The notes below the pieces were generated by a model. That model saw nothing but the letters and a program-made list of their open reading frames with translations. It ran no database searches and was not told the DNA's origin. Both the position numbers and the translations under genes were made by a program. Positions 2 through 33,400 of a DNA stretch of 64,000 nucleotides are shown here, piece by piece; the first letter of the stretch is position 1; every line of letters begins with the position of its first letter. The stretch comes from Methanofollis liminatans DSM 4140 (GTDB taxonomy: Archaea; Halobacteriota; Methanomicrobia; Methanomicrobiales; Methanofollaceae): assembly GCF_000275865.1 (NCBI RefSeq), contig NZ_CM001555.1, positions 186,001-250,000 of the forward strand, read 5' to 3'.

Positions 2-649
2 ACAGAGACGACAGGACAGTTCGTACAGGCCGTCAGAGATGACGACTGGCTATCTGTCCATGATCTCATGATGGGATATCCGTATTATGCTGCGTTCTAT
101 CGTGGGGTGAAGAATTCCGGACCTATCGAGTTACACGATCTCCAGGACCTCATCTCTGATGAAGAGTTCAACTTCAACGAAACAGCTCTCTCCGTTATCT
201 CAGACTGGACATTGAGGATCGGATCGCTTCAACGGAACGTCTTCAACAACCATTATTATGACGTTGATGGCACAGGTGAATCCTTTACAAAGGTCTTATT
301 GAATGCATACGATGACTTGAACCTCTCCGGGAGCGGGAACCTCAAACAACGATATGTCGAGATTCCGAAGATCCGGGAATATGTCTGTGAGCAATTGAAA
401 ATTTCAAGAAAGAAGTTTGATACAACATTTGTCGATCTCTATGGGAACAATATTGGAAGATGGGAACTGGCCGGCGCTCCGATCACTACACACGCAAAAA
501 AATCCAGCACTAAGATAAAATCTCTTGTTTTCTCTCAGATGCTCGATAGAGTGTCGATAGAACTCACATCTGATCGATATTTACAGGGGATCGAGTACGG
601 GAGAAAGCAGTACTATTATCTGGCAATTCACACGAGGGATGTTTTATGA
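2..649 (+). CDS. Unknown protein, 5' end outside the window
   Basis: The reading frame is open from base 2, so the gene starts upstream of the window; the visible part codes for 215 residues. An internal ATG exists at 68, but the open frame before it argues against that as the start. I do not recognise a family. The protein is hydrophilic, has no membrane segment or signal peptide, and ends with a basic, tyrosine-rich tail. Its stop overlaps the ATG of the following ATPase gene by 4 bp, so the two are almost certainly co-translated and probably partners. The base composition is AT-richer than the right half of the window, as for the rest of the island. Confidence 0.6.
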   Translation, partial: TETTGQFVQAVRDDDWLSVHDLMMGYPYYAAFYRGVKNSGPIELHDLQDLISDEEFNFNETALSVISDWTLRIGSLQRNVFNNHYYDVDGTGESFTKVLLNAYDDLNLSGSGNLKQRYVEIPKIREYVCEQLKISRKKFDTTFVDLYGNNIGRWELAGAPITTHAKKSSTKIKSLVFSQMLDRVSIELTSDRYLQGIEYGRKQYYYLAIHTRDVL

Positions 650-1827
650 GTGATTTAAAAATTATCATTTCTAAGAAAAATTATGAAGTTTTCGGGCTGA
701 ATGCAAATCCGTTCCCCTATTCGGGTATACCCGATCAGGTTCCAAATATTTACGTCGGCCAACCGGAGGTGATGGGCAAGGTGAGTGCTGTTCTATCCTC
801 GGTGTTCTCGACCGGCCACTCGAATCACCTGATCCTCACCGGATCCTATGGCAACGGGAAGAGTCACACCCTGAAGTTTATTCAAGCTCAGGTACAAAAC
901 AAATTTTTTGAAGGTTCGGCCATCAAACCAGTTGCAGGATATGTTGCCCAACCTGGGGAGTCTTTTCTGGATATATACCGGGATTTTATCTACGACCTTG
1001 GTTCGGCGTATTTGAAATCATGTTCGCAGGAATATATCGGCACAGTATGCGAGGAGATATCGGAGAACGGGACGATCGAGGAAGACATTCAACCGGGGAT
1101 GGGCTGGCGAGCCATTGAGAAGGGAAAGGTCCTGCTCTCTGACATCGTCCCTCAGGCATATGTTCGGCTCTCCGAGTTGACGAGGTACCCTGATTTTTCC
1201 CGGGCGTTTTTGAACCTCTCCTATGAGGAGAATGCCTACACCTCATGGGAGTGGTTGAGCGGAGAGTCTATCGAGTATTCACGTCGGAGAGAACTGCATC
1301 TGACCTCGAACATCACGGCCCATCACGCACAACGTGCGTTTATGGCATTGAAGACGGCGCTGGAGGCGATCGGTCATTCGCCGATGATCATGCTCATCGA
1401 CGAGTTTGAATGTATCGAAACGCTTCAGGCCAGGACGAAACAGAATATGCTCAATGCACTCCGGCATTTGATCGATATCAATCCAACGGGTCTTTCGATG
1501 ATCATCGCCTGTGCGCCAGAGGTCTGGGAGCCACTTGTTGCCGAATATCATGCATTTTCTGATCGTATTGCAAAAGAAGCCAACCTGAAGCCTCTGGATA
1601 AGAATTCAGTTGTTCACCTTATCACTGAATACCTCAATACCTGTAGGCCGAATCCCTCTGATTCTCTTGAGCCATTCACTGAGGAGTGTGTGCAACGGAT
1701 TTTCGTGGAAGGTAACGGGAATGCACGGCGGATTATTACGATATGTGGTCAGGCGATTGATGAGGCTCTCTCGAAAGAGATGGAGGGTGTTGATCTGGGG
1801 GTGCTTGAACGTATGAGTGGAATATGA
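646..1827 (+). CDS. Orc/Cdc6-like AAA+ ATPase
   Basis: This 393-aa protein opens with a GLNANPFPYSG motif around residues 18-27, followed by Walker A GSYGNGKSH (about 66-74) and Walker B MIMLIDEFE (about 248-256), so it should bind and hydrolyse ATP. The GLNxNPF signature followed by a P-loop is shared with the much larger ATPase at 12733-16089 and is typical of Orc-like ATPases in BREX, Dpd and transposition systems (known of the families). It overlaps the upstream unknown gene by 4 bp. It is convergent with the nuclease gene at 1889. A role as a loading or signalling ATPase for a defence or mobile system is inference from the context. Confidence 0.8.
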   Translation: MSDLKIIISKKNYEVFGLNANPFPYSGIPDQVPNIYVGQPEVMGKVSAVLSSVFSTGHSNHLILTGSYGNGKSHTLKFIQAQVQNKFFEGSAIKPVAGYVAQPGESFLDIYRDFIYDLGSAYLKSCSQEYIGTVCEEISENGTIEEDIQPGMGWRAIEKGKVLLSDIVPQAYVRLSELTRYPDFSRAFLNLSYEENAYTSWEWLSGESIEYSRRRELHLTSNITAHHAQRAFMALKTALEAIGHSPMIMLIDEFECIETLQARTKQNMLNALRHLIDINPTGLSMIIACAPEVWEPLVAEYHAFSDRIAKEANLKPLDKNSVVHLITEYLNTCRPNPSDSLEPFTEECVQRIFVEGNGNARRIITICGQAIDEALSKEMEGVDLGVLERMSGI

Positions 1828-3377: not shown

Positions 3378-4853
3378 CTATTGGTTGAGAATCCTTTCAA
3401 TTGCCTCTCGAACAACCACTGAGTTCTCGGTTTCCATATGGTTTTTAAGAATCTTAATCGCTAGTGGACTACCAATGATCCCTAGGGATCGAACACAGGC
3501 TTCCCGAACCTGAGTATTATAATCAGAAAACCCCTTTTCAAGGGCCATGACTGATGCTTGAGTATTCAGACCAGACAAGGCCTGTGCAGCAGTAACACGG
3601 GCTTTGGGATGTGGGACTGAATGCAGAATATCTGCAAGTACCTCAGGCGTACGGGAGAGGGGGAATGTGCTAATGCATTCAGTTGCATAGACAGCAAATG
3701 CCTGGTTGCATCGAAATACTTCTTGGTGCAGTAGATTCAGAGCTTCATCGGTTTTCAGGTTAGATAGTTGTTCTATAGCCTCTATCTTAACTTTGAGGTC
3801 GGAGGAGTGAAGAGATGAGATGATAGAATGGATTAATGGATTAGGGTCCATATTGTCATCACAATTTTTTGGTGCGATTATTGGATCTGATATTGTTTGA
3901 AGGGTTTGCTGCTGTAAATCTTTATTAAATTCTGTCTTTTGAATTTTTTGGGTCCATTTTGTTGTTTTTTGTGGTCTCTCTGCTGGGGGAAGAGACGTCA
4001 TTTTCGGATTTAGAGTAATCATTTTTAAGAGATTTCTGTTGATCTCCTGAAACCGCCTATATTCTTGCACAAGAGTGTGTTCCCTACAATACTCCAGTAT
4101 ATCGTGAAGTTTTACAACACAATAACGAAGATCAGTTATTGAACCCGGACCTTGATTTAAAAATGCCCAGTAATATCGATATTCTGTACTGAAGATCCGT
4201 TTGTAAGATTTCTGTGCTAAAGTTTCTGTACTCTGTGTAAATTTGTCCAGGATTTGCTGGTAGAGTATAGGATTGCTGAGCACCGGCAGGGGTCCATATA
4301 CCGTGTTAACAAAAAGTGTCTTTTCTGAGTTAAAATGATTCAGAATTTTATCCTCTGGGATCCCCCAATATGAGGTTAGATTCTGAAAATAATCTTCTTT
4401 TTTTACTTCATATGGAGCACTAATAGGTATGTCTTCATCTTGTAAAATATCTGACCATTTCAGGAGGCTAAATCCAAGTGAGGGGTCAAATATTCGAGCC
4501 TGAATAGGAATTGGGATAAAAGAATATCTATAACTTGTACGATGTCCGTTTTGATCGTTTGGAATTATTCTGCGGGGAATGTATCCTTCCTTAAATACTG
4601 AAGCATCATCCATGAGGGGATTGAGTACATTTCTAATATCCTGTTTATCAATCCCATATTTTGATACGAACTCCTCAATAGTCCACGAACCGGCTATAAG
4701 ATCATCGATGAGCAGTTGGGATAAGGGCCTCTCGAGAATCCGGTAACTATTTGGATCAAATTTTTCAAAATGACTCACTAGACGGCCATTCGAGACTACC
4801 TGCTGAGAGTTGATCAAATCATAAATTTGCCGTCTGTTGATAGATATACTCAC
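3378..4853 (-). CDS. HEAT-repeat protein, last gene of the Dpd-type operon
   Basis: The 491-aa product starts at a GTG preceded by GAGGATGATC, a good archaeal Shine-Dalgarno. Residues 1-300 are of unknown fold. A low-complexity basic linker (about 300-345) leads to a C-terminal array of about four HEAT/PBS-lyase-like repeats (for example ARVTAAQALSGL, QVREACVRSLGIIG, VVREAIERIL). Such arrays are protein- or nucleic-acid-binding scaffolds, so a structural role is likely but no catalytic function is visible. It lies 50 bp downstream of the Dna2-like gene on the same strand, so it is probably in the same transcript. Confidence 0.7.
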   Translation of the reverse strand: MSISINRRQIYDLINSQQVVSNGRLVSHFEKFDPNSYRILERPLSQLLIDDLIAGSWTIEEFVSKYGIDKQDIRNVLNPLMDDASVFKEGYIPRRIIPNDQNGHRTSYRYSFIPIPIQARIFDPSLGFSLLKWSDILQDEDIPISAPYEVKKEDYFQNLTSYWGIPEDKILNHFNSEKTLFVNTVYGPLPVLSNPILYQQILDKFTQSTETLAQKSYKRIFSTEYRYYWAFLNQGPGSITDLRYCVVKLHDILEYCREHTLVQEYRRFQEINRNLLKMITLNPKMTSLPPAERPQKTTKWTQKIQKTEFNKDLQQQTLQTISDPIIAPKNCDDNMDPNPLIHSIISSLHSSDLKVKIEAIEQLSNLKTDEALNLLHQEVFRCNQAFAVYATECISTFPLSRTPEVLADILHSVPHPKARVTAAQALSGLNTQASVMALEKGFSDYNTQVREACVRSLGIIGSPLAIKILKNHMETENSVVVREAIERILNQ

Positions 4854-4903: not shown

Positions 4904-7900
4904 TTATATCTCATCCGGAGAACGATTTTCTGAAATAATCTCTGCAATCAATCTACTCTGTCCAATCGTCTCTCTATCCCCCACAACAATGAGATTTTCT
5001 TCAGCAGAGGTAAACATCGTATACAGCACACCAGGATCGGTCAGTGGGTACCTGATGACCCGTTCTGCGTTGGCACTCACAAGCGAGATGATACATGAAC
5101 GGAAACTCCGGCCACTGATCTGGAAGGGGAGCCACACCGAGACGCAACCGATCCCGGCCATGTACAACCGTTTCTTCAGAAGCGAGGCCTGCGAGATAAA
5201 CGGTGTGATGACGGCCGTCTCTTTTTGTTCATCCGGGGACATCGCCTTCAGAAGTGCAATGACCTCTTCTGCCTCCTCCTCATTGGAATACAGCAGTTCT
5301 TGAAGGGTTTCAGACAATGAGATTGGAATCCGGATCACGACAGAGACATTCTCCTTCGGATCCGACGCATTCGCACTCCCGAGCGGATCGATCTGGACGA
5401 CCCTGCACGAACACTCCCCGACCTGGAACGAACTTCCGGGGCCGTAGTTGCTTATGGAGTGTTTCGTAAGATTTTCAAGGAGTGTCTCTATCGTTGCGGC
5501 ATCCAGAACGCGGTCAGGTTCGATGACCATCTGGTAGTTCATCCGCTCATCTCCCATGCAGATCTGATAGAGGCAGTCGACACGGAAAACCGACCTCTCA
5601 TGTCCCTTTACATCAATATATGTGAGGTTCCCGTCAATCCGTTCTGAGGAGATCTCCGAATCGATCTTCTCGAAGGCTCGAACTACACTCCCGGGGAGTC
5701 GCCTGAAGGGCTCATGGTAGACCGCGTAATCGTTTGACTCAAAATATGAATCATAGAGGACGAGTCGCTCAAAGGGCCTTTCCTCAAGCCCCAGTGAGCG
5801 AGCCTCTCGACTGCGCACCGGGTACGACATCCTGAATGCATCGCCGATGAGAAGCGTTGAATATCCCAGATTTTTGATATAGTAAAACATCGGTTCAAAG
5901 AATTGTTCGGCCCCTGTTGCACACACATAATCAAAGTAATACGACCTTTCTGGATGTGAGAGAGCCTCAAAGAAATGAGAGCGTTGAAGGAATCCAATAT
6001 CGGTGATGATCACACGCGACAGAGATATTTTTTCCTGAATATCTCTGGGGGAATTATTCTCTCCGATCTCACAGACCCTGGGTTTGGGTGGGAAATCTTC
6101 CTCTCGATCGATGATGAGGAGATCGTGCGTTCTGGGATATCGCTGGACAAACTCCTCAATCTCCGATCGATTTCTGAGAACAACGAGAACAGAAAATTTC
6201 TCTGAAAGGTGGCCAAGAATTTCCACGCATCGTTCGACATCAGAGGTCTGGGATGGGGAATGGATCGCAACCAGTTTGCTCCTGAAGAGATCCTTGGCCA
6301 CAGCCACTGGATCATACTCTTTCAGTGCCCGCGTTTCGAGGATTTTTCCCCGGGACCCGGAGGAGAGGCGCATCTCCTGCCGATTGCGCTCAGTATAATC
6401 GCTCACCCTGAGCAGATACCGCATGATCGCTTTCTCAGAATAATCTCTGGAAAGAGCATATCTGGGTGATCCAAAGAACTCTTCAGAGGGAGAACCGCCG
6501 AAGAGGACCTGCACCTCATTGAGGCCGATTCCAGCCAGAGTTCCAGAATAGGTGTTTTTTCCATCTTCCGTCGAGATCGACACCCTATCTCCAGGAATGC
6601 AATCGAGGCATGGGAGGGCCTCATCAGAACTGAAGATACAGACCTGATCAGATCTGGTCATAAGTTTTAGATTGCTCACTTTCTGACCGCCCATCCGAAG
6701 CGTTTCTTCAGGGAGGTTGCGAAGTTGTCTGGCAAGGAGGGTCAACTCTTCGTTTTCTGCCGAGATGGCCTTTCTCATCTTGTTCCAATGATCGATGATC
6801 TCTGTATCGAAGTAGGAAAATTTGAGTTCGCAGTCATCAAACAGCGGGCATAATGCTGTAATCTGACCGTGTTCATCATACAAATAACAATCCCAGTATC
6901 GTTCAGTCTGACAGTAAAATGAACACGCAGGATACATTTTTTGCAGAGAATAAGGAGAAGGACGCCGATATCTACATTCTTCACAGTCCATGTTCTGGGG
7001 GGATGGGAGCTGCATCCCTCTTCTCATGAGCAAAACACGGTGACGGCCATAAAGAATGGCGTCGATATCTTCTTCGGTCAGTTCTACAGGGTGAATGTGA
7101 CGACACTCACCTGAACTCCTCGATTCTACGCACTTCGAATACATGAGATGCCCCATGCGATTGCCTGAGTCCAGATAACTCACAAGGAGGTAGACCTTGA
7201 GCTGGATCAGGTGTTCTTCATGGAGTTGAGAGGAGGTTTTGAGTTCTACCGGAACAGATCCATCAATAAGAAAGTCGAGCACACCTGAAAATCCATAGAG
7301 CTGGTTGACCATCCGCTCGGTGACCACATTTCTTCCCCTGAAAAAATCTGCTACCTCTGTTTCCTGCGTGAGATCTTTAAGATGGAAATATGCATCCTTC
7401 TGGACACTTTCAAGCGTGTCATCTGCGAGAAGGTGGAGGGCAGAGCTCATTCTGAACGTCGTATTTGTCTCATTTTCGACGATCTCCCGCAGTCTTCCCG
7501 TTCTCTCCCTCCCCCCCATCTCAGAAAGGTGGACTATCTCTCCCGATAGGGTGAGATGTTCGCAGATGCTATGGACTACGTTTCCACGGGAAATCTGTTT
7601 CACGGGCCTTCTGAGAATATTGTCCGTGGTGTTTTTGATATATTCAAGATAATAGATCCTCGGACAATGAAGTGCGCCAATGATCTCCCGTGGTCCGATT
7701 GCAATGGAAGGATGAGCAATGAGAATCCGTTCGACATTTATCCAGAATATTTCGGCAGAATATTTCAGAAAACCCTCAAAGAACACCTCCTCTCCCTGAC
7801 TGAAGAGATGGCACATCTTTTTACACTCTTCATCATCGCTCCCGAAGAGCGAGACGAGGTTCGGTGAGGTTTCGGTGTAGGGGAGCCAGGAGGGAGGATG

Positions 7901-8092
7901 TTCCCAGATTACAATCCTGATATCGTGTCGGTATCCAGAGGGCACCTCAAGGTTCAGCAGATACTTCGGCCCTCCCTGAGTCGTTGCATAGTAGGGCTGC
8001 GAGGATAAACGGGCCCGGCTCTGAATCCATTGGTCTTTGTAGGCCTCCGGTTCTTTCACCAGCGTATCAAAGGGAACATATGTTCCAGTCAA
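4904..8092 (-). CDS. Cas4/Dna2-like nuclease fused to a catalytically degenerate SF1 helicase
   Basis: The 1062-aa product begins at a TTG directly after the stop of the upstream gene, which implies translational coupling. After an N-terminal OB-like part there is a RecB/Cas4-type nuclease (about 130-390): LHCPRIYYLEYI, ISRGNVVHSICEHL, GVLDFLIDGSVPVELKTSS, QLKVYLL and a later CEEC cluster. This matches a PD-(D/E)XK site with a probable Fe-S cluster. The C-terminal half aligns by eye with Dna2/Upf1 helicases, but the motifs are ruined. The P-loop position reads HSPSQTSDVER, motif II FDYVCATGAEQ, motif III LIGDAFRMSYPV and motif VI LYTMFTSAEENLIVVGD. I infer a live nuclease carrying a dead, probably structural or DNA-binding, helicase half, comparable to AddB. 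Confidence 0.8.
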   Translation of the reverse strand: MTGTYVPFDTLVKEPEAYKDQWIQSRARLSSQPYYATTQGGPKYLLNLEVPSGYRHDIRIVIWEHPPSWLPYTETSPNLVSLFGSDDEECKKMCHLFSQGEEVFFEGFLKYSAEIFWINVERILIAHPSIAIGPREIIGALHCPRIYYLEYIKNTTDNILRRPVKQISRGNVVHSICEHLTLSGEIVHLSEMGGRERTGRLREIVENETNTTFRMSSALHLLADDTLESVQKDAYFHLKDLTQETEVADFFRGRNVVTERMVNQLYGFSGVLDFLIDGSVPVELKTSSQLHEEHLIQLKVYLLVSYLDSGNRMGHLMYSKCVESRSSGECRHIHPVELTEEDIDAILYGRHRVLLMRRGMQLPSPQNMDCEECRYRRPSPYSLQKMYPACSFYCQTERYWDCYLYDEHGQITALCPLFDDCELKFSYFDTEIIDHWNKMRKAISAENEELTLLARQLRNLPEETLRMGGQKVSNLKLMTRSDQVCIFSSDEALPCLDCIPGDRVSISTEDGKNTYSGTLAGIGLNEVQVLFGGSPSEEFFGSPRYALSRDYSEKAIMRYLLRVSDYTERNRQEMRLSSGSRGKILETRALKEYDPVAVAKDLFRSKLVAIHSPSQTSDVERCVEILGHLSEKFSVLVVLRNRSEIEEFVQRYPRTHDLLIIDREEDFPPKPRVCEIGENNSPRDIQEKISLSRVIITDIGFLQRSHFFEALSHPERSYYFDYVCATGAEQFFEPMFYYIKNLGYSTLLIGDAFRMSYPVRSREARSLGLEERPFERLVLYDSYFESNDYAVYHEPFRRLPGSVVRAFEKIDSEISSERIDGNLTYIDVKGHERSVFRVDCLYQICMGDERMNYQMVIEPDRVLDAATIETLLENLTKHSISNYGPGSSFQVGECSCRVVQIDPLGSANASDPKENVSVVIRIPISLSETLQELLYSNEEEAEEVIALLKAMSPDEQKETAVITPFISQASLLKKRLYMAGIGCVSVWLPFQISGRSFRSCIISLVSANAERVIRYPLTDPGVLYTMFTSAEENLIVVGDRETIGQSRLIAEIISENRSPDEI

Positions 8093-10168
8093 TCAGATCA
8101 CGTCCAGCAGATTCAGGAGCAGGCGCTTGTCACGATGTGCATAATGAGCAGATGTCATTCCATACTGATTGTCAAGATCAATGCATTCCGGGCAGGCATT
8201 TATACAGACAGGCACGATTTCATCGACCCGTGCGGCAATTTCGGCCAGATCGCTTTTATGCCTTGCGCGGAATTCATCGAACAACTTGAGGGCCCGCGGG
8301 TCATAGAACGGGTGGGCGGAACAATAGAGAAGCAGGTCAACACCCCTCGGTGTCCTCTTCAGAAACACCTCCAACCGGTCGTAGCCGAGCACAAGCTCCC
8401 GGTAGAATGCGATCAGATCTTCAGACGTCGTGAGCCGTTTGAGATCAAGCCTGACAAACGTACGAATATCATCTCGCTTTTTGTCTTCGAGTGAGATATG
8501 TTGGAGTTCCTCCAGATCGTCAAGTGCATTGTTGATCACCTGATCCTGCAGATCTTTATCCTCTAAAAACACCCCGGAGAGGAAATGCGTGTTGTATTTC
8601 TTGAATATCCATCTGATAACCGCATCCCCAATATCTACGTCACACTGGATGGCTTGCTTGATCTGATCATTGATGCTGTCGGCAGGTTCGGCGGCAAGAA
8701 CCTGGATCTTTCCATAAAATTCACGGGCGATCCCTGTTCCTCCCTGGTAGGTGTCGTAGGCATAGACACGCAATTTCCCTCCTTCATCACTGGTATCAGA
8801 CCAGAATGTGAGTCCTTCACCGACCACACTGAATATTTGTTGGCTCCAGACCTGGATCGCTTTTTCAATGGTCTGCGAGAGAACCTGTTGAATGAACCCT
8901 CTAAACGAGGCCTCGTTGAATGCCTCCTCAACAAGTGCGCAGAGTCTTTTCTGGTGATTCTCGAGGATCTCATTGATTTCGCCCCGTCGTTCAGGGGTGA
9001 ACCCGGCAAGACGGAGCCTGATCTCGCTCTCCTGTGGAATCAGTTGTGAAACTATTCTTTTCTGTTCATCCAGATCACGTCTGAAAAATGCACGCAGGTC
9101 GGTGTCCGGTTTCATCTCTTTCAGAATATACTCCACACCACACAGGAAATCGAGGCACCATTCCACGTCATAGAGTGAGCCCAGCAGTCCCTCTTTCTGG
9201 AGAACAGAGGTGTGTAGCAGCAAGCCGAGATAGGCAAGTCTCAGGTCATTCTGCAACACCGGGTCTGATGCCACATCTGCCATGGCTCTCTCGAGATATG
9301 GCCGGAGGTCAATCGTAAAAACAACGGCCTGGGAAATATGTTCTGTGCCGATGAGGGCATACCGATCATCACTGTCATGGTAGAAGGGAATGAGTCTGGT
9401 GATTGATTGGCCGCTGGTGAAGAGTTGAAGGCAGTTTGCATAATAACAGCGTGCCAGTCTGAAATCAGGAATATATGCTGCAGATTGCAGAAGGGAACCC
9501 TGTTGGAAGGTTAAGGGATCGGTGTCTCCACCGATTCCTGTTATATCGGCAACACAGAGGGGAACGGTCTCCCATAAGGGTGAAGATATCGGATCCCGTT
9601 TGGCTTCATGGGTGGTGCCTTCGGTACGGCATTGCGTCAGCAGATGAATTGTATCGTTCCAATAGAACGTGCCATGGGGTTCTATCTCCTCGACATAGAC
9701 CGTTTCAGGGAAGTAGACCGAGGTCCTTTCTGTCGGAAGACCGAGAGGCGAGAAGGTTTCATGCGCATATATCTCATTCAAAGCGACGACTTTTGCACAA
9801 TTAAATGTCTGCTCGATCTTTGAAGCACCCTGTAAACAGCTGCTCGGTTGCCAGAGTGCACGGAAATGTTTGAACCCCCACCGTTTCTTGTAGCCCCCGG
9901 GTAAGAAATTGCTCAAAATGAACTCTTTTCCCTCGGCATCAAGCCTCTGCTGCCTTCCTCCTGTGCGCTGAACAATGGCGATCGTTCCCCCGACCCGCTC
10001 CGGAATAAAATTCGCCGGAACACAGTAGGGTTTGACCGTTGCCGGGTCCAGGCCGAAGAGATCAGGGGGGTGCATATAGGCATAACTGAATTTTCCGGGT
10101 CCATGACCGAATTTTTGCCAGTACTTATGGGCGGCTCGCAATCTGGAAATCTGTTCTTCCCGGTTCAT
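8093..10168 (-). CDS. DUF1998 / DrmB-like protein, helicase partner
   Basis: This 691-aa protein carries the DUF1998 hallmark: a YAYDTYQGGTGIA segment around residues 480-492 and a C-terminal CINACPECI...DKRLLL zinc-type motif (about 650-690). DUF1998 proteins act with, or are fused to, SF2 helicases (MrfA repair helicases, DISARM DrmA/DrmB, and some Dpd genes). Here the helicase is the adjacent upstream gene, overlapping by 4 bp, so the pair is a split version of that architecture. It joins the following Dna2-like gene stop to start. I infer a role in recognising or remodelling target DNA. I do not assign a dpd letter. Confidence 0.8.
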   Translation of the reverse strand: MNREEQISRLRAAHKYWQKFGHGPGKFSYAYMHPPDLFGLDPATVKPYCVPANFIPERVGGTIAIVQRTGGRQQRLDAEGKEFILSNFLPGGYKKRWGFKHFRALWQPSSCLQGASKIEQTFNCAKVVALNEIYAHETFSPLGLPTERTSVYFPETVYVEEIEPHGTFYWNDTIHLLTQCRTEGTTHEAKRDPISSPLWETVPLCVADITGIGGDTDPLTFQQGSLLQSAAYIPDFRLARCYYANCLQLFTSGQSITRLIPFYHDSDDRYALIGTEHISQAVVFTIDLRPYLERAMADVASDPVLQNDLRLAYLGLLLHTSVLQKEGLLGSLYDVEWCLDFLCGVEYILKEMKPDTDLRAFFRRDLDEQKRIVSQLIPQESEIRLRLAGFTPERRGEINEILENHQKRLCALVEEAFNEASFRGFIQQVLSQTIEKAIQVWSQQIFSVVGEGLTFWSDTSDEGGKLRVYAYDTYQGGTGIAREFYGKIQVLAAEPADSINDQIKQAIQCDVDIGDAVIRWIFKKYNTHFLSGVFLEDKDLQDQVINNALDDLEELQHISLEDKKRDDIRTFVRLDLKRLTTSEDLIAFYRELVLGYDRLEVFLKRTPRGVDLLLYCSAHPFYDPRALKLFDEFRARHKSDLAEIAARVDEIVPVCINACPECIDLDNQYGMTSAHYAHRDKRLLLNLLDVI

Positions 10169-12720
10169 ATCTGCCCTCCCATCTGAATGATTGTCCTGAG
10201 AATCTCGTTTTTGATTTCTTCGATGCCCCGCCCCTGATTCTCTTTGTCGTACCGGCAGAGGTCGATAAATGAACTCTCTTCACGACCCGGTTCGAGAGGT
10301 TCAAGCGAGGATCGATAATAGGCACAGAGATGCTCAAGGATCTGGTTGGCATCTGACGGACTGATCTGGAATGTTTCGATCACCTCTTTGATAATGTGGT
10401 CTTTATTGTTTTTAATCAGCTGAAGCGTCTCTTTCACATCGAGATTATAGTAATGGACCCTGAGGTCACGCTTATATGCATGTGTACTGATATAGTCGTA
10501 AATAAACGAGACGACATGCATGGCTTTGATATACTTGTTTGCCGGGTCTATGGGTATTTCCAGTTTATCTGACCCGGGATCCGTCAGAAGCGTGGTGTGG
10601 TGGAAGTAAAAATTATCGAGAGGGTGCGATCCAAGCACCACAACTGAGACGGGCATATCAGAGGGAGAACGCCCGCCCCGCCCGATCCTCTGCACAAACC
10701 CGGGGATATTCATCGGAGCCTTATACTGGAATGTTCCGATGATGGCCGGATGATCAAACCCTACTTCCAGCGAGGAGGTGGTGATCATCATGTCCCAATC
10801 GTCGGTTTTAACCTCTTTATTCTGGCAATTGCAGGTGTTGCCCGATTTGTGGACATGGATATTCATCGGGGAGGTATCACGATCCTCCATCGTCCACCAG
10901 CACTCTCCGTCGAGATAGGCCTGGCAGCGGTTGGTGTATGGATTGGGTGGAAGTGTCTCACAGGCCACATGGGGGCAGTTGCGATTCAGAGCCGTGTCAA
11001 GCTTGTGATCCGGGGTCCGTAACTGATAGAGTTTCCTCTGTCGTTCGGCATCACAGAGTTTGTCTCCGAGGCGCTTGATAATATCAATGGAGTCGACGAA
11101 TCCGATGATCCGATCCTTCTCTTTCATCTTGAGCATCGTATGGTAGAAACAGAAGGCAGTCTGTATCATCGCTGAGAGGTTTGTGGCGATAGTGAGTCGC
11201 TCCTTCTCCTCCCCGGGCTTGGGGATCAGGATCTTGCGGGGATTGGTGGCTTTGAGAAAAACCACATATTCACGTCCTATCTCCTCCAGGTCTGTATCTC
11301 GGGGCCTGATGGCCTGAGCATTATCCGTCGAAAAGAGCTGGCAGGCAAACGTTTCAGGGGCACCGACGGTTGCACTTGATGCAATGAATATCGGTTCAGC
11401 GGATGTCTTCGACCGGATCTTCTGCCGGAGTCGCTGTACGATATTTGCGACATGCATCCCTGACTGGTTTGAATAGATGTGGGCCTCGTCAAAGACGATA
11501 AATTTTGGAAGAACGTCCTTCCCGTCCCATATATTCTCTTTCCCGTATTGGTCCATCAACCTACGGTGCATGGAATCGGGTGTTGAGATGATGATGTCGG
11601 CCGGGCTGTTTTTATCGACAATATAGTCGATGAGGTGGTCGGCGTTCTGGTCACATCGATAAAACCGGTCGCCATTCTGTGTGACCAGCTTGCCGGTGCA
11701 CCCATCATACGGACACGCGAGCGATAGACCGTCTGTCCGGCTGTGGTGAATGCCGATTTTGATCTTTTTTGTTCCAGGCAATCCCGAATCATTGATGATC
11801 GCAACGTAGCGGAGGAGGCGCTGGACCTGATCGTTACAGAGGTCGATCCGGGGGTAGAGGAGGAGTGCTTTTGTCCCTGACTTTTTGCTCATCAATAACG
11901 TATAGAGCAAAATCGGGAAGAGAAAGGTCTCTGTTTTTCCAGAACCGGTGCTGGACTGGATGATATAAGAGAGATTATCTGATGAAAAATCCTTTGATAT
12001 GGCTGCTTTCAAGATCTCCTTGAATCCATCGACCTGGAACCGGGAAAGATAAATTTCTGAAGGGTCTCGATTGAAGTTACTCTTGATCATCAAACGGAGC
12101 CACTCAAATGCCTTTTTATATGTTCCATCTTGAATGGCGCCCTGGATGGATTCATTCAGCCGCACTTCATCTTTGACGGTGAAGACGCTCTGGAGTGCAT
12201 TTTTGAGGATGATATCACGTTTAGGCCTTCTTCGACTCTTTGTCTTCAGTTTTACCATCTGAGTGAGGCCGGGTGACGACTCATAATCGTCATCGAAGCG
12301 CTGTTTTAGATAGGAAAAATAACGGACGAGTTCTGCAATCCGGCTCCTCACCCGTTGTTTATCGTACACATAGAGGAGCACTCCATCATTGACCATTTCC
12401 CTGAGGCACTGGAGAATGATCACACGGTATATCTCTGAGAGGTCGTTTTTATCAAAAGAGCCACTATCAAATCCACAATGGTCGGCGAGAGAAGTGAGCA
12501 GGACAGGATCTTCTGTCCCTTCAATATCGTGTAAAATATCACATATCGGGACAAAACAGTCATAATCTCCTCTATTGATATCCTGTTCGTTCCGGTCTTC
12601 GACGTATTTTAAAAGAGCGTATTTTAGGGATTGTATTTCTTTTTTTCCCTGAGAATTGCCATTATTCCCAAGGAAAGAGGCCCAGGAAACATGAAAATTC
12701 TCAAGGATGTCACCGTCCAT
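10165..12720 (-). CDS. SF2 DEAH-box helicase of the Dpd-type operon
   Basis: This 851-aa helicase has Walker A SSTGSGKTE (about 256-264), a DEAH box in FIVFDEAHIYSN, motif III SSATVG and motif VI FVQRIGRGGRS. A zinc-ribbon-like insert (CPYDGCTGK with later Cys) follows motif I, and a second Cys-rich patch lies between the two RecA domains. All ATPase motifs are intact. The layout matches the MrfA/DrmA/DpdJ-type DEAD helicases that work with DUF1998 proteins, and the next gene is DUF1998. The N-terminal 200 residues are unassigned. It should use ATP to translocate on or remodel DNA. It is the third gene from the divergent promoter at about 16.9 kb, 12 bp after the large ATPase gene. Confidence 0.85.
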   Translation of the reverse strand: MDGDILENFHVSWASFLGNNGNSQGKKEIQSLKYALLKYVEDRNEQDINRGDYDCFVPICDILHDIEGTEDPVLLTSLADHCGFDSGSFDKNDLSEIYRVIILQCLREMVNDGVLLYVYDKQRVRSRIAELVRYFSYLKQRFDDDYESSPGLTQMVKLKTKSRRRPKRDIILKNALQSVFTVKDEVRLNESIQGAIQDGTYKKAFEWLRLMIKSNFNRDPSEIYLSRFQVDGFKEILKAAISKDFSSDNLSYIIQSSTGSGKTETFLFPILLYTLLMSKKSGTKALLLYPRIDLCNDQVQRLLRYVAIINDSGLPGTKKIKIGIHHSRTDGLSLACPYDGCTGKLVTQNGDRFYRCDQNADHLIDYIVDKNSPADIIISTPDSMHRRLMDQYGKENIWDGKDVLPKFIVFDEAHIYSNQSGMHVANIVQRLRQKIRSKTSAEPIFIASSATVGAPETFACQLFSTDNAQAIRPRDTDLEEIGREYVVFLKATNPRKILIPKPGEEKERLTIATNLSAMIQTAFCFYHTMLKMKEKDRIIGFVDSIDIIKRLGDKLCDAERQRKLYQLRTPDHKLDTALNRNCPHVACETLPPNPYTNRCQAYLDGECWWTMEDRDTSPMNIHVHKSGNTCNCQNKEVKTDDWDMMITTSSLEVGFDHPAIIGTFQYKAPMNIPGFVQRIGRGGRSPSDMPVSVVVLGSHPLDNFYFHHTTLLTDPGSDKLEIPIDPANKYIKAMHVVSFIYDYISTHAYKRDLRVHYYNLDVKETLQLIKNNKDHIIKEVIETFQISPSDANQILEHLCAYYRSSLEPLEPGREESSFIDLCRYDKENQGRGIEEIKNEILRTIIQMGGQI

Positions 12721-12732
12721 TGGATCACCTGA

Positions 12733-15700
12733 TTATCTGAAACTGATATTGATATCCGAGATCTTTCCCTGTTGGTAGAGCGATTTAATATACGCAAAAG
12801 TTTCATCGACAGAATGAACTCCTTTTAGATCCTGGAACCGGACATTATTTTGCCCCCCATAATCATCTATCAACTTTTCTTCCGGAGTCTTGATGACCTC
12901 TTTTCGCGATTTCCGAAGGGCATTATATTTTTTCAGTGCAAGTTCAACGCTCGCAAAATCCCATTCATCGAGGGAGCGTTGTGCCGCATCGAGGAGTTCA
13001 ATGAGGCCTGTATCCTCTCCGGAAATGGTTCGGTATTCTCCAATCTTTCCGGAGTAACTTTTATACTGGGTATCTATATTCCGCAGATCCTGGTTGAGCG
13101 TCTGGAGGTTGCTATAGATTTTATTGATACACTCCTTGGCTTCATTGAATTTTCCGGCGTTGAAGAGTGGGTTATATTCATCGGTGTACTGCTTCGCGAG
13201 ACTTGCAAGAGTGCTTCTTTTATCTGTACCGGTATATCCAAGATCTTCCAGAGAGTCCAGGGTTCCCTCACAGATGCCCCTGAGGTCACCGTATTTTTCT
13301 GCATATGTGATGCATGGGTCTTTACTGCTCTTTCTATCCTGGATCTGAGTCTTGTACGTCTTGATTTTATTCTCAAGATCGTTTGAGCCTATAGCGAGGT
13401 GGATATAGTCCTCTGATTTAAGGTGTTTTTCAATGTCAGAAACAGCATTATTCAGCGATTTAGTCCATTCATCTTTTTCAATTCCAGAGCGATAGCCTTC
13501 TTCGCATCCCTTATTGATCCACTCCAGGAGCTGCTCTACCTGACTTTTTTTGTTGTCAAAGCCTGAGATATATTCTCCTTTTTTATTTTTTACTTCTCTA
13601 TCCAGGTTTTTCCGCTTTTCAATGATATTTTCGATGAGATTCTTGCACTCTTCGACGTGCTGTGCATTGTACTCAAACTCATCCTGAAGAGAGTCCAGAT
13701 CTGATGCATATTGTTCAATCGCATTCCTGTGATCTGATAGGGGGATCTGAAGGTTCTCGGCAAGAGGTACCAACCCGCGATAGGTTTCGAGTTCATCTTC
13801 AAATGTTGCAAGGTACTGGTTTACCTGACTCGAAAAGTCCATTGGTTTATGGAATACTTCACCATGGTCTGATTCAGAATCAATCATGCTCTGTTTTTGC
13901 AGGATCTCCAGGTACCAGGAGACCATACGCATCTCATCCCCCGGCGGGGTCTGAACGATGTAGTTGTCCTCGATATACTCCCAGATTTCTCTGGTTGTGG
14001 CTCTTGTATTTTTGCTGACAAATGAAAAAATCGACTTCCAGGGAGGGTTCTGGTCCAGTGTGGCGATTTTCCACTTGGCGCCATCAGCTTCAACAAAGTG
14101 TTGATGCTGTAAACCTTGCATGAGATTTTTATCGATATAATTCAGTTTTAGTGCTGTTTTTAATTCTGTGATTGAATACGATTTCAAGGAATTCGATGCA
14201 AGGTGATCGATAATCCTTCGACGGTTTTCTTCAGGGAATGCGATCGCCTTTTCTTCGATCAGCTCGGTGATCTTCTTTGCGACTCCAATAGTCTCGAAGA
14301 GTCTGGCTGTGTCAATTTCTCCAATAGAATCGATCTCTCTGTTCCCAAGGAGTTTGATCATCCCCATCATTGTGTCCCTGTCATCAGAGAGTTCATGGAC
14401 TCCTATAGAACAGATATTTCCAAAAAATCGTTCATTTTCGGTATTTTGAAGAGAATTTTTGAATTTGTTGAAGTTTGGATCTGCCTTGAAGTAAAAACCC
14501 TCATAGATCACAAAACCGATCGTTGCAACTTTTTGGTCCAGGAGATTGAGAATGCCGTTATATAATTCTGTAGGGAACTCTCTGCCTTTATAGGCTGCAA
14601 ACGCAACACTCACCGGTGCTGGTGAGGTCTCCAGTCGCAGATTTCCAACAATCGCCCGATAGGAGTTAAATGATTTATCTGTTTTATACTCAGCCTTCGC
14701 CTCTTTTTGCAGCAGTGTCCAGAGCCCTGTAGTCAATTGAGGCTGATACCGTTCAGGGTTCTGCATCAGTTCGATCAGTTCACGATCAAGGTTTTGTTCG
14801 ATTTGAGAGTCGTATCTTTTCCCCTTGAAGATCTCATTTTTGACCTCCTGGTGGATGACGTAGGTTGTCTCACCATGTTCGCTGAATTTTCGCTCAAGGA
14901 TACGAATCCCCTGAATCGGCTGGGTCAACCCGTCAGGATTCGAATCAAGGCTGAATTCATCCTGGGAAACCTCGGCCTCCTCTCCAATCAGCTTTCCCTG
15001 CAATCTTTCAAAATCTTTAAAGAGGGGTTCATCCCTCTCCTTGATGGCGGTCGTGATCCGGCTGAGAGCCCCATAATCAAGGACCACATTCTCCTTATCA
15101 AAAAATGAGGTGTGGGTCGCGAGAACCTGAAGGATACATCCCCCATCTACTTCTTTTATCCCACTTTTTTGCGCGTATATGAGACCTTTGTTCAGGATCG
15201 AGAGGATCTCTCTGGGATGTCCGCCAGTCAATCGTGCAACAACACCTACAACGCCCTCGTGAAGTGGGTAAAGGCTTTCACTTGGTGTTATTCTGGAACT
15301 ATTGAGCCTATCATGGACCATGGCCAGTACATCTTTTTCAGAGAGGTAGCCAAGAACGATCTCATCATTATTCTGGAAACGCTGTAGTAATGCATCTCCA
15401 AGTCTGCTCTCTGAGGATTCAGGACCGTTGATCACAGTAATTTTTGCAAGTGCTTCCCGTGAAAAACCCATGATGAAATGGAGGGGAGCTCCGGAAAAAT
15501 GGTTGACCAGATGAAGCAGCGTCTGGACAAAGTACTGAATTTCATCATTGTCACTTGATTGAACAATATCCTCTGCCTCATCGATCAGGAGAAATATCCC
15601 ATTGTAACCCTGCAACTGTGAGGTGGCGACGATTTTTTGTATGTTTGCAATGACGTTGTCGCGAAGTCTCTCTTTTTTATAGGCTTGATCGACGCTTTCA

Positions 15701-16089
15701 GCGGGCTCCACGGGAGGGAGAGCCGCGATGATATCCTGAAAGTCTGAACCATACGGAGAAAATGACTCAATGAACTTCTCATAAAACCGTCTGATACTTA
15801 TACCGAGATTTCCCAGATAGACCGCTACTGCACCATCCCCGTACATACCTGAGCGGATCTCATCCTGGAGGCGCAGAAGGTGATGGGTCTTTCCGGTACC
15901 ATATTCTCCACGCACGAGCATACGCTGCTGTTTTTTTTCATGTAAGGCCCTTTTCACAAAGAACTCTGCTTTTTCCAACTGGTCTTCCCGTCCGAACAAT
16001 CTGTATTTTTTCGAGGATTCCTGGTCTCCTATGATCGTATCAAAGGGATTGGAATTCAGTCCGAGGTCTGAGAGGTCAAGGTCACTCAT
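12733..16089 (-). CDS. Large Orc-like ATPase with coiled coils, DpdH-like
   Basis: The 1118-aa product begins with an LGLNSNPFDTI motif, then Walker A GEYGTGKTHH (61-70) and Walker B GIFLLIDEAED (about 163-173), followed by Orc-type lid features and winged-helix-like segments (about 600-770). The last 330 residues are long charged coiled-coil stretches. The order small protein then large ATPase resembles dpdG-dpdH in bacterial 7-deazaguanine restriction clusters, and BrxC-type ATPases are a second analogy. The start overlaps the upstream gene by 8 bp. I infer that it is the motor or signalling ATPase of the restriction module. The dpdH label rests on architecture and order, not on an alignment. 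Confidence 0.75.
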   Translation of the reverse strand: MSDLDLSDLGLNSNPFDTIIGDQESSKKYRLFGREDQLEKAEFFVKRALHEKKQQRMLVRGEYGTGKTHHLLRLQDEIRSGMYGDGAVAVYLGNLGISIRRFYEKFIESFSPYGSDFQDIIAALPPVEPAESVDQAYKKERLRDNVIANIQKIVATSQLQGYNGIFLLIDEAEDIVQSSDNDEIQYFVQTLLHLVNHFSGAPLHFIMGFSREALAKITVINGPESSESRLGDALLQRFQNNDEIVLGYLSEKDVLAMVHDRLNSSRITPSESLYPLHEGVVGVVARLTGGHPREILSILNKGLIYAQKSGIKEVDGGCILQVLATHTSFFDKENVVLDYGALSRITTAIKERDEPLFKDFERLQGKLIGEEAEVSQDEFSLDSNPDGLTQPIQGIRILERKFSEHGETTYVIHQEVKNEIFKGKRYDSQIEQNLDRELIELMQNPERYQPQLTTGLWTLLQKEAKAEYKTDKSFNSYRAIVGNLRLETSPAPVSVAFAAYKGREFPTELYNGILNLLDQKVATIGFVIYEGFYFKADPNFNKFKNSLQNTENERFFGNICSIGVHELSDDRDTMMGMIKLLGNREIDSIGEIDTARLFETIGVAKKITELIEEKAIAFPEENRRRIIDHLASNSLKSYSITELKTALKLNYIDKNLMQGLQHQHFVEADGAKWKIATLDQNPPWKSIFSFVSKNTRATTREIWEYIEDNYIVQTPPGDEMRMVSWYLEILQKQSMIDSESDHGEVFHKPMDFSSQVNQYLATFEDELETYRGLVPLAENLQIPLSDHRNAIEQYASDLDSLQDEFEYNAQHVEECKNLIENIIEKRKNLDREVKNKKGEYISGFDNKKSQVEQLLEWINKGCEEGYRSGIEKDEWTKSLNNAVSDIEKHLKSEDYIHLAIGSNDLENKIKTYKTQIQDRKSSKDPCITYAEKYGDLRGICEGTLDSLEDLGYTGTDKRSTLASLAKQYTDEYNPLFNAGKFNEAKECINKIYSNLQTLNQDLRNIDTQYKSYSGKIGEYRTISGEDTGLIELLDAAQRSLDEWDFASVELALKKYNALRKSRKEVIKTPEEKLIDDYGGQNNVRFQDLKGVHSVDETFAYIKSLYQQGKISDINISFR

Positions 16090-16888
16090 ATAATTTCAAC
16101 TCCTGTGCCATGTCCATGTTAATCGAGAATTTTTCATAACTTCCAGCAGTAATGAGATCAGGGAGAAGCGAATTTTTCAGAATCGAAAACCGTTCATCAA
16201 ATTCAGGGTAGTTCATGTTATATCTGAGAGAAAAGCGTTCTTTCATTGAGTATAATGGGACCGTACCGTCCTTGTCTTTCAATTCACAGTATTCCTCAAC
16301 CAGAAGTTGAGCAAAGATCATGTTGTGGAGGTTTACAAGGGTATATGAGGCCGGAGACTCTCCATCTTTCTTTTTCTGGAGGAGAGATAGTCGTTCCAGT
16401 TCCGCAAGTGAGGTCTCAATCGTGAAGGGATTAAATGAGTGTCCAAAAACATTCCTTTTGTCATATTTCATGCCAATTTCTGATTTGGATAACTGTTTCC
16501 TGCGGAATATGAATGCAGCCAGATCCCTGATCTCCGGTGAATAGTAGAGCGCGTTTGTCTGCAGCATGAGCAGCGCACCCTGTTTATCGCCATTGAGATC
16601 GGCCGCATAGATCTGTTTTCCAGAATAGAGATTGATATGGTCCTGATTTAGGGCTGATGTCAGAACCAGATTCTTGTCATCCTCGGCAACAAACTGGAGA
16701 ACCTTCAAATTATAGAGAACATCGGTTGTCGCACCGGACAGGGATTTTTTCCCTTTTTTTTCGATCTCTTCATTATCACAAAATTGTTTCAGATAATTAA
16801 AGAGTTTTTCTTTGGAAATCGGGCCATTTTTGCCTATATAATTAATGGCAAGAATAATTCGATTTGGATCAGATATTGCTCTTCGCAT
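16082..16888 (-). CDS. DpdG-like small protein, first gene of the operon
   Basis: This 268-aa protein has an N-terminal segment that looks like a winged helix (about 8-60, ILAINYIGKNGPISKEKLFN) and a second helical domain; no enzyme motif is visible. A GAGATGAT Shine-Dalgarno precedes the ATG, and a TATA-like CTATTTAT sits about 45 bp upstream on the minus strand. In bacterial dpd loci a protein of this size (DpdG) precedes the ATPase DpdH, and here too it overlaps the ATPase gene, by 8 bp. An adaptor or DNA-binding role is inferred. Confidence 0.65.
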   Translation of the reverse strand: MRRAISDPNRIILAINYIGKNGPISKEKLFNYLKQFCDNEEIEKKGKKSLSGATTDVLYNLKVLQFVAEDDKNLVLTSALNQDHINLYSGKQIYAADLNGDKQGALLMLQTNALYYSPEIRDLAAFIFRRKQLSKSEIGMKYDKRNVFGHSFNPFTIETSLAELERLSLLQKKKDGESPASYTLVNLHNMIFAQLLVEEYCELKDKDGTVPLYSMKERFSLRYNMNYPEFDERFSILKNSLLPDLITAGSYEKFSINMDMAQELKLYE

Positions 16889-17009: not shown

Positions 17010-18731
17010 ATGCGCTACTTCATTCCAGAATGGGACGATCGGGTGGACCCCCACTATGACTTTCTCACCGATACGCATTCGCAGACTCATTCCGACGATC
17101 CGGTCAAAAACGACTCCTACATGTGGGACCTCTTAGGAGTTGAAAATGTTCCATTTAATGGTGTGCTGGTTTCAATAGCCACGATTGAGCAAAATAAGAA
17201 GAAATACGCGATGATAAAAGAACAGGGGATCCATCGTTTCTTCGGTCTCCCCGATTCTTTCCCGATAATGGCCGACTGCGGGGCGTTCTCCTATATTGAT
17301 GAAGATGTGCCGCCCTATCGCACCTCCGACATCCTGGAAAAATATTCTGAGATGGGTTTTAACTATGGGGTGAGCGTCGATCACCTCGTTGTCAAAGCTT
17401 TTGAAGAGAAAAAAGAAGAAAGGATGGAAATTACTTATCAGAACGGCCTTTCTGCATTTGAAGAGTGGAACAAAAAATATCGTGATGATTTTCAGTTGAT
17501 CGTTGCAGTCCAGGGTTTTTCCACGGATGATTATCTCAGAATGTACCATAAGTTTCTGGATCGAGGGATAACCCATATGGCTATGGGAGGTCTTGTACGA
17601 TCTCAAACTTCGGAAATCATTGATTTGATAGATCGTCTTATCGCCGACCTAAAGAAAAACAGCAAAATACATGGTGCTTCCAGAAAACCCGAATACCTCC
17701 ATTTTTTCGGTGTTGCACGACCAGACCTGTTTTTCAGGTTGAAAGAGCTTGAATCACTGGGAGTGGAGGTTGCATTTGACTCTGCCTCATATCTCAGACG
17801 GGCGTGGTTGGCCTCTCCGACCAGTCAGATGAACTATATCACCCAGGACCAGATTGGCTATACGGCCATCCGCATACCCCAGGATTTGTCCAAAAAACAG
17901 CGAGAGTCTTTAGACCCTGAGATCTATCATCGTCTGGAAGAAAAAGCCCTGAGCACTCTCCGAGCATACGATCACGATAAGGCCGACCTCGACGAGGCCC
18001 TGGATGTTTTGCGGGATCTAGGCGATTATATCGGTGAGAGGCCGGAGATTCTTGAACATTATCGGCGCACTCTCAAGGATCAACCGTGGAAGAAGTGTCC
18101 CTGTCCGATATGCCGGAAAAATGGAATGGATACGATTATATTCAGAGGAAATAATCGCAACCGAAGGAGAGGATTTCATAACACTATTTCGTTCTTCACT
18201 CTCCTCAGAAATGAGGGTCAGTGGGATAGAACGTATGCAGGAACCGAGATTGAAACACTGGAGGAATTCTCATATGGTCAATCTGTTCTGGTCATCACTG
18301 GATGTACGAAAAATAAATGTGAAATCGGGGAAAATCGAAAGGTTGCTGCTAAAGACTTGTATACTGGGACACTTTTCACGAAAGTACGGGCCTTTTGCGA
18401 GGGGATGGGATATGATTACCGGATCATCTCTGCGAAATATGGCATATTGTCACCTGAAGATCAGATCACGACCTATGAAAAAGTATTGAAAAGTCGGGCC
18501 GATGCCGATCAGATCCGTCCCTCTGTGGAAGCCGGGCTCAAACCCATCCTGGATATGTACGATACGATACTTGTGATTGCAGGGGTGCAATATCGCGACG
18601 TCCTAAAGCATATCATAGATGAACGATTTGTCTTTTTAAAAGCGAAAGGAATTGGCGATCTGATCCATAAGGTGTCGGTTGCCATTCCGGATGTAAATAG
18701 GACAATCAATGAGTTTTCGCGTGATCAATAA
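17010..18731 (+). CDS. dpdA: DpdA-type DNA 7-deazaguanine transglycosylase fused to a YaaA/DUF6884-like domain
   Basis: This 573-aa protein has a complete TGT-like barrel. It shows D89 in MADCGAF (general acid/base position), AMGGLV (191-196), the probable nucleophile D257 in VAFDSASY, and the zinc site C363-x-C365-x2-C368...H390. The PUA domain of archaeal tRNA transglycosylases is absent. Instead residues about 425-573 form a second domain (VLVITGCTKNKC, AAKDLYTG, IISAKYGIL) of the YaaA/DUF6884 kind. DpdA enzymes exchange guanine for preQ0 in DNA (known). Archaea make preQ0 for archaeosine, so the substrate should be available. It is transcribed away from a helicase/nuclease operon, as expected of a modification gene. 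Confidence 0.85.
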   Translation: MRYFIPEWDDRVDPHYDFLTDTHSQTHSDDPVKNDSYMWDLLGVENVPFNGVLVSIATIEQNKKKYAMIKEQGIHRFFGLPDSFPIMADCGAFSYIDEDVPPYRTSDILEKYSEMGFNYGVSVDHLVVKAFEEKKEERMEITYQNGLSAFEEWNKKYRDDFQLIVAVQGFSTDDYLRMYHKFLDRGITHMAMGGLVRSQTSEIIDLIDRLIADLKKNSKIHGASRKPEYLHFFGVARPDLFFRLKELESLGVEVAFDSASYLRRAWLASPTSQMNYITQDQIGYTAIRIPQDLSKKQRESLDPEIYHRLEEKALSTLRAYDHDKADLDEALDVLRDLGDYIGERPEILEHYRRTLKDQPWKKCPCPICRKNGMDTIIFRGNNRNRRRGFHNTISFFTLLRNEGQWDRTYAGTEIETLEEFSYGQSVLVITGCTKNKCEIGENRKVAAKDLYTGTLFTKVRAFCEGMGYDYRIISAKYGILSPEDQITTYEKVLKSRADADQIRPSVEAGLKPILDMYDTILVIAGVQYRDVLKHIIDERFVFLKAKGIGDLIHKVSVAIPDVNRTINEFSRDQ

Positions 18732-22719: not shown

Positions 22720-22732
22720 AAAAGAGGGAAAA

Positions 22733-33009: not shown

Positions 33010-33329
33010 AGACCTCCTGCTCTCCCTGGAGGACATCAGGGATGCCCTCTGTGGGGGAACGGTCGTTTGAGGATGTTGTGGACGATCCGATGTGCCTCGA
33101 CGCCGTCGTGCTGCGGTTCATCACCATCGGGGAGGCGGTGAAACATCTCCCGGCCGACCTCACCGCCGGCCATCCCGAGATCGAGTGGCGAAAGATTGCC
33201 GGGCTCCGGGACATCAGTGTTCATTCGTATTATTCGGTGAAACCGACGATTCTCTGGGATATCATCCAGACCAAACTCGATCCCCTTGACGAGGCCGTCG
33301 AGGGTATGATCCGGGATGAAGGGGAATAA
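33002..33329 (+). pseudogene. hepT: HEPN (HepT/DUF86-like) toxin gene with an N-terminal frameshift
   Basis: The natural ATG at 33002 starts MPRDLLLSLEDIRDA but reaches a stop after 22 codons. The rest of the protein lies in another frame (33042-33329, 95 aa) and includes ERSFEDVVDDPMCLDAVV and the active-site motif RDISVHSYY (R-x4-H-x-Y). Compared with usual HepT proteins about 8 residues are missing at the junction, so a small deletion has shifted the frame. The ATG at 33042 could still give a shortened protein that keeps the catalytic motif, so activity is not excluded. A sequencing error is a further possibility. Confidence 0.75.
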
Positions 33330-33380
33330 CCCTCTTCACCCCCACTCGTTCATCTGCAAAACAATCGCCACCGCCTGCCC
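33330..33380 (-). repeat. Duplicated 3' end of the small membrane-protein gene, copy B
   Basis: The minus strand encodes AVAIVLQMNEWG and a stop, a more diverged copy of the end of the gene at 34908-35150. It begins directly after the HEPN stop codon. Confidence 0.8.
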
Positions 33381-33400
33381 GGCCCCGTCATGCGGCACAA

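What the first reader, a model, noticed from the sequence alone, without database searches (positions are those of the whole stretch)
4904..8092. Nuclease with a dead Dna2-type helicase half
The PD-(D/E)XK motifs and Fe-S cysteines look intact, yet the Walker A, DExQ, motif III Gln and motif VI Arg positions are all replaced. The overall alignment with Dna2/Upf1 is still easy to follow (FDYV..., LIGD..., VITPFISQ..., FQISGRSF). Loss of every catalytic residue with the fold kept suggests selection for a binding role, perhaps sensing modified bases, while the neighbouring DEAH helicase supplies the motor.
Basis: partly seen in the sequence, partly recalled or inferred. Interest (0 to 1): 0.62.

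Follow-up and report, generated by a model that had tools for sequence, protein, structure and literature searches.

The report
Nuclease with a dead helicase half
An archaeal defence island that probably marks its own DNA with 7-deazaguanine-type bases carries a DNA-cutting protein whose attached helicase engine lost every catalytic part long ago yet has been kept in 23 relatives, so the engine seems to have become a non-motor grip or sensor for the cutter.

Summary
The 1062-aa protein is a Cas4/AddB/Dna2-type PD-(D/E)XK nuclease joined to an Upf1/Dna2-type SF1B helicase that has lost Walker A, the DE of DExxQ, the motif III Gln and the motif VI Arg. This is no misalignment: 23 homologues in methanogens and haloarchaea share the losses (catalytic Glu is Gly in 23/23) and align motif for motif with intact archaeal Dna2-like proteins. 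Nuclease residues and eight cysteines are invariant. The dead half is under purifying selection; its former ATP cleft is its best conserved part. The gene always follows a Zn-binding 'canopy' gene and an intact DEAH (DpdJ-type) helicase gene, and its genomes carry DpdA, the 7-deazaguanine DNA transglycosylase (16/16 against 40/375 haloarchaea; 3/3 against 1/97 relatives). Best reading: the effector nuclease of a split Dpd/BRIGADE-like restriction system, with the dead helicase as a non-motor DNA- or partner-binding coupler and the DEAH protein as motor. That it reads the modified base, as RecC/AddB read Chi, is possible but untested. BRIGADE is published (preprint) for halophiles; the dead helicase, the methanogen branch and this gene split are not described in the text I could read.

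The parts
4904..8092 (-). P5: PD-(D/E)XK nuclease fused to an inactivated Dna2/Upf1-type SF1B helicase, 1062 aa
6803..7693 (-). P5 nuclease domain, about residues 134-430: H174, D273, E283, K285, Q297, Y301 and eight invariant Cys (143, 370, 373, 390, 394, 402, 415, 421)
4925..6295 (-). P5 dead helicase half, about residues 600-1056
6236..6262 (-). former Walker A, HSPSQTSDV in place of HGPPGTGKT
5891..5935 (-). former motif II, FDYVCATGAEQFFEP (D to T726, catalytic E to G727; E729 new and conserved in 22/23)
5819..5851 (-). former motif III, LIGDAFRMSYP (Q to R754, Arg in 19/23)
5003..5035 (-). former motif VI, PGVLYTMFTSA (Arg to Ser/Cys/Ala in 23/23)
8093..10168 (-). P6: canopy-like protein with MrfA Zn-binding (DUF1998/MZB) domain, C-terminal half of a split DpdJ/DrmB-like unit
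10165..12720 (-). P7: DEAH helicase, N-terminal half of a split DpdJ (NF041067 3e-63, 214 bits, below the 800-bit cut-off), intact motor motifs
12733..16089 (-). P8: AAA+ ATPase with coiled coil; only a short form of about 355 aa without Walker A in some haloarchaeal loci
16082..16888 (-). P9: 268-aa partner, in 10 of the 23 loci
3378..4853 (-). P4: region shared with haloarchaeal partner proteins (weak winged-helix hits there), here with C-terminal HEAT repeats
17010..18731 (+). DpdA transglycosylase fused to a DUF6884/DpdC-like domain
646..1827 (+). P2: BrxD-like ATPase of the modification triad (TGT1, P1, P2)
68..649 (+). P1: 3' part of the second triad gene; the gene starts before the window, right after TGT1 (L101:14786-15814)

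Best explanation
P5 is the effector nuclease of a Dpd-like, 7-deazaguanine-marked restriction system. Shown by computation: the nuclease residues are intact and invariant; the helicase half lacks what every known SF1 ATPase needs; this loss is ancestral to the family; the cleft is conserved with new residues; the gene directly follows a split DpdJ-type helicase (P7 motor plus P6 canopy); its genomes carry DpdA. Inferred: host DNA carries preQ0-derived bases made by DpdA, probably the amide form because DpdA is fused to a DpdC-like domain; P7-P6 load on invading DNA and translocate; the dead Dna2 half of P5 holds the displaced strand and/or docks P5 on P7-P6, so that cutting is tied to the motor of the partner rather than to P5's own.
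For: 23/23 homologues keep the nuclease residues and lack catalytic Glu, P-loop Lys and motif VI Arg. Collinear with intact archaeal Dna2-like proteins; the fold prediction of the half from a haloarchaeal member hits Upf1, Ighmbp2 and Dna2 first (Foldseek E 2e-15 to 2e-13; Z 12-14). dN/dS 0.09 nuclease, 0.14 domain 1A, 0.19 domain 2A. Motif columns more conserved than other columns of the half (2 of 456 circular shifts reach it). P6 immediately upstream in 22/22 readable loci, mostly with a 4-nt overlap. P7 motor motifs intact in 19/19. DpdA in 16/16 against 40/375 haloarchaea (p = 4e-15) and 3/3 against 1/97 relatives (p = 2e-5). DpdA islands without P5 that were examined instead hold DpdJ-like helicases with a PLD protein or a DpdH-like ATPase, or a PglZ-like set.
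Against: No experiment shows restriction or base modification in any of these archaea. Motifs that contact nucleic acid in active SF1B helicases are mostly altered too, so strand holding is not proven; net charge is uninformative. The conserved cleft may partly reflect buried strands of the fold. Only one closely related pair was available for dN/dS. The half-protein model has mean pLDDT 68, pTM 0.43, with uncertain domain arrangement.
Confidence: 0.62

Rival explanations
1. Base reader: the dead helicase is a scanner, as the inactivated helicase domains of RecC and AddB are for Chi. The strand fed by P7 passes through it and 7-deazaguanine bases in its tunnel stop or spare the nuclease.
For: Precedent for inactive SF1 folds as ssDNA scanners (PMC4824097). 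Strict tie to DpdA genomes. New invariant or nearly invariant cleft residues G727, E729, R754.
Against: DpdA islands without P5 manage with other helicase and nuclease modules, so self-recognition need not lie in P5. DISARM sensing is assigned to DrmAB (PMC9142583). No binding data.
Confidence: 0.22
2. Pure scaffold: the half is kept only as a docking platform between the nuclease and P6-P7 and touches no DNA.
For: Gene always adjacent to P6; canonical motifs lost, including those that bind nucleic acid.
Against: The cleft is the most conserved part, while a docking platform would rather conserve an outer surface.
Confidence: 0.25
3. Decoy or small-ligand sensor: the dead site traps viral inhibitors or binds a nucleotide signal, as proposed for other inactive domains in BREX-related systems.
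For: Proposal for inactive domains (PMC12839542); conserved non-catalytic cleft.
Against: A decoy should evolve fast at the mimicked site, whereas the cleft is conserved.
Confidence: 0.08
4. Misaligned or still active helicase, or a decaying gene.
For: Arg in the P-loop Lys slot in 20/23.
Against: Catalytic Glu is Gly in 23/23, no GxxGxGK loop, intact controls collinear; purifying selection; full length in all 23 copies.
Confidence: 0.02

Closest known systems
BRIGADE systems (Bell et al. 2025 preprint, PMC12458937)
   Same: 7-deazaguanine genes plus YprA-type helicases in archaea, with a PLD or occasionally a PD-(D/E)XK nuclease; six haloarchaeal loci here (G566, G464, G253a, G577, G731, G648) also hold a second YprA-like helicase of about 1600-1860 aa
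   Different: The window has one YprA helicase, split in two genes, in a methanogen; the paper reports BRIGADE only in halophiles, and its main text does not mention an inactivated Dna2 helicase. Its supplement could not be read.
Dpd (dpdA-K) systems of bacteria
   Same: DpdA, DpdJ-type helicase, DpdC-like domain
   Different: P5 in place of the PLD nuclease; DpdJ split over two genes; no DpdB, D, E, G, H or I match among the ten island proteins scanned
DISARM (DrmA-DrmB-DrmC)
   Same: separate helicase and Zn-binding canopy genes followed by a nuclease gene
   Different: no methyltransferase found; the mark is 7-deazaguanine-type; the nuclease is PD-(D/E)XK with a dead helicase rather than PLD
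Dna2 nuclease-helicase
   Same: Fe-S PD-(D/E)XK nuclease N-terminal to an Upf1-type helicase, collinear
   Different: helicase dead; four extra invariant Cys; about 130 extra residues between the two RecA-like domains
AddB / RecC
   Same: nuclease or nuclease partner with an inactivated SF1 helicase fold beside an active motor
   Different: AddB/RecC are UvrD-like with the helicase-like domain N-terminal, so convergence and not membership

Membership tests
Dna2 | Fe-S PD-(D/E)XK nuclease domain followed by an Upf1-type helicase | tested here: met
Dna2 | active SF1B ATPase motifs I, II, III, VI | tested here: not met
Dpd system | DpdA transglycosylase | tested here: met
   NF041059 3e-95, 319 bits over the 200-bit cut-off
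Dpd system | complete single-gene DpdJ plus DpdK PLD nuclease | tested here: not met
   DpdJ match 214 bits, under the 800-bit cut-off and split over two genes; no PLD match in the ten proteins scanned
Dpd system | 7-deazaguanine present in DNA | not testable with these tools
   needs mass spectrometry
BRIGADE | 7-deazaguanine genes with a YprA helicase and a PLD or PD-(D/E)XK nuclease | tested here: met
   QueC of the preQ0 pathway present elsewhere in the genome
BRIGADE | usually two YprA-like helicases, at least one ARMADA-like | tested here: not met
   only one YprA-type helicase found in the window island; second copy only in some haloarchaeal loci
DISARM | methyltransferase with DrmA, DrmB and DrmC | tested here: not met
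   no methyltransferase gene among the ten island proteins scanned; only one weak partial hit in the HEAT protein
AddB/RecC | UvrD-like inactive helicase domain at the N-terminus | tested here: not met
   this helicase is Upf1/Dna2-like and C-terminal
AddB/RecC | recognition of a signal in DNA by the inactive helicase | not testable with these tools
   needs binding assays

The most novel reading that the evidence does not exclude
Probability: 0.2. Interest if true: 0.82.

Novelty: new variant of a known kind. Interest (0 to 1): 0.57.

Why it matters
How 7-deazaguanine-based restriction tells marked from unmarked DNA is, as far as I know, unresolved. It also extends BRIGADE-like systems from halophiles to methanogens and gives a second, apparently independent, case of an SF1 helicase fold kept after losing its engine next to a nuclease.

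Tried and rejected
Misalignment of motifs: rejected with intact collinear homologues. Decay of a gene: rejected. First fold job on the whole window protein was poor (pLDDT 55) and was not used. Viral contigs: no relative found by one scan. A bacterial branch: the genome-contig scan found only haloarchaea plus one weak partial Arcobacter hit, not followed. The islands seemingly without DpdA (G566, G464, G577, G731, G648) turned out to have it 24-77 kb away on the same contig. Net charge as a test of DNA binding was uninformative. A regex test first seemed to show P7 motor loss in haloarchaea; alignment showed GGGKT and DEVH variants, so that was dropped. NCBIfam PLuB_AAA matches only the last helicase domain, and no paper on the PLuB system was found. 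A published account of the dead helicase was searched for without success. Original Dpd papers (PMC6207457, PMC4801273, PMC10164549) are not held.

Full report
CHECK OF THE OBSERVATION. The ORF lies at 4904..8092 on the minus strand, 1062 aa. Pfam finds PD-(D/E)XK (PF12705, 9.5e-10) and Cas4 at residues 141-377 and AAA_12, the C-terminal domain of Upf1/Dna2-type helicases, at 917-1040 (2.9e-8). phmmer against solved structures aligns it with DNA2 and UPF1 in the same order, weakly (E 0.02-0.8).

HOMOLOGUES. Two related methanogen genomes (80% and 41% identity), three haloarchaeal plasmids (23-26%), nine further haloarchaeal contigs and 16 of 391 Halobacteria genomes hold full-length relatives, partly the same loci. 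The set used has 23 sequences; 17 are below 85% identical to one another. All keep the nuclease residues C143, H174, D273, E/D283, K285, Q297, Y301 and eight cysteines. The intact archaeal Dna2-like proteins have four, so a second metal site is likely (inference).

THE DEAD HALF. Aligned with intact archaeal proteins, each motif falls in register: IHGPPGTGKT to IHSPSQTSDV, FDVALVDEAAQLTEP to FDYVCATGAEQFFEP, GDHxQLPP to GDAFRMSYP, TRAK to TSAE (profile-profile probability 99.3). Catalytic Glu is Gly in 23/23; the P-loop Lys slot is Arg in 20, Asp in 2 and Glu in 1; the motif VI Arg is Ser, Cys or Ala in 23/23. A model of the C-terminal half from a haloarchaeal member (mean pLDDT 68) has Upf1, Ighmbp2 and Dna2 as best solved matches, so the fold is kept. 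Between the window and its 80% identical relative dN/dS is 0.09 in the nuclease and 0.14-0.19 in the two RecA-like domains. The former motif columns are more conserved than the rest of the half (2 of 456 shifts), with new residues: G727 in all, E729 in 22 of 23, R754 in 19. That fits re-use of the cleft better than drift, with the caution that these strands are also buried.

SURROUNDINGS. The gene follows P6 (MrfA-type Zn-binding domain) in every readable locus, usually with a 4-nt overlap, and P7 (DEAH helicase, best model DpdJ) precedes P6 wherever the contig reaches that far. P7 and P6 look like a split DpdJ, as DrmA and DrmB are in DISARM (architecture per PMC12458937). P7 keeps all motor motifs in 19/19 homologues. 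P8, an AAA+ ATPase with a coiled coil, is shortened and lacks Walker A in several haloarchaeal loci, so P7 is the one motor always beside P5. DpdA, fused to a DpdC-like DUF6884 domain, lies at 17010-18731. A second transglycosylase (TGT, 1.3e-40) lies just before the window, followed by P1 and the BrxD-like P2; this triad recurs in most DpdA islands.

ASSOCIATION. All 16 P5-positive haloarchaeal genomes carry DpdA, against 40 of 375 others (Fisher 4e-15); one of the 16 DpdA hits (G464) has E 3e-30 but was not flagged over the curated cut-off. Among 100 methanogen-order relatives it is 3 of 3 against 1 of 97. These tests treat genomes as independent, which related genomes are not; the spread over 15 haloarchaeal genera softens that. 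Ten DpdA islands without P5 were opened: several hold DpdJ-like helicases of about 1820-1870 aa; in those characterised, a PLD protein (G598), a DpdH-like ATPase (G607) or a PglZ-like set (G234) accompanies them. P5 therefore appears to be one interchangeable effector of this kind of island.

MECHANISM. Shown by computation: intact nuclease, dead and ancient helicase half, intact motor next door, strict link to DpdA. Inferred: P7-P6 drive, P5 cuts, and the dead half couples the two by holding DNA or the partner. RecC and AddB are the precedent for dead SF1 folds beside a motor (PMC4824097), but they are UvrD-like, so this would be convergent. Whether the half reads the modified base is open; in DISARM the helicase pair is proposed to do so (PMC9142583).

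COMPARISON AND NOVELTY. The published class closest to this is BRIGADE (PMC12458937): Dpd-like archaeal systems, reported only in halophiles, in which PLD is occasionally replaced by PD-(D/E)XK. Six haloarchaeal loci here match its two-helicase layout. The window system lacks the second YprA helicase and lies in a methanogen (mcrA present). I rate it a new variant of a known kind. The supplement of that paper could not be read, so the dead helicase may already be annotated there.

Noticed in passing
window 20344-23941: UvrD-type helicase (791 aa) overlapping a PD-(D/E)XK nuclease (447 aa); the pair recurs in both related methanogen islands, and UvrD relatives of 1048-1078 aa (one also matching the nuclease) occur in haloarchaeal DpdA islands.
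   Followed up: partly
window 1-24000: G+C is 0.43-0.54 here against 0.57-0.69 beyond 24000, so the island looks foreign.
   Followed up: partly
window 24129-26705: XPB/ResIII-type helicase with C-terminal HEAT repeats; homologue in the haloarchaeal island G731.
   Followed up: no
window 1889-2968: NucS C-terminal-like protein next to the operon, not found in the other 22 loci.
   Followed up: no
window 33316-34848: Schlafen AlbA_2 domain protein with RecG-like C-terminal domain.
   Followed up: no
L008:19398-24185: In Halobaculum marinum a 1595-aa nuclease with AAA_11 and AAA_12 helicase domains and Mokosh MkoA similarity follows the dead-helicase nuclease.
   Followed up: no
window 4904-8092, residues 390-421: Four extra invariant cysteines beyond the usual Fe-S set suggest a second metal site.
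   Followed up: partly
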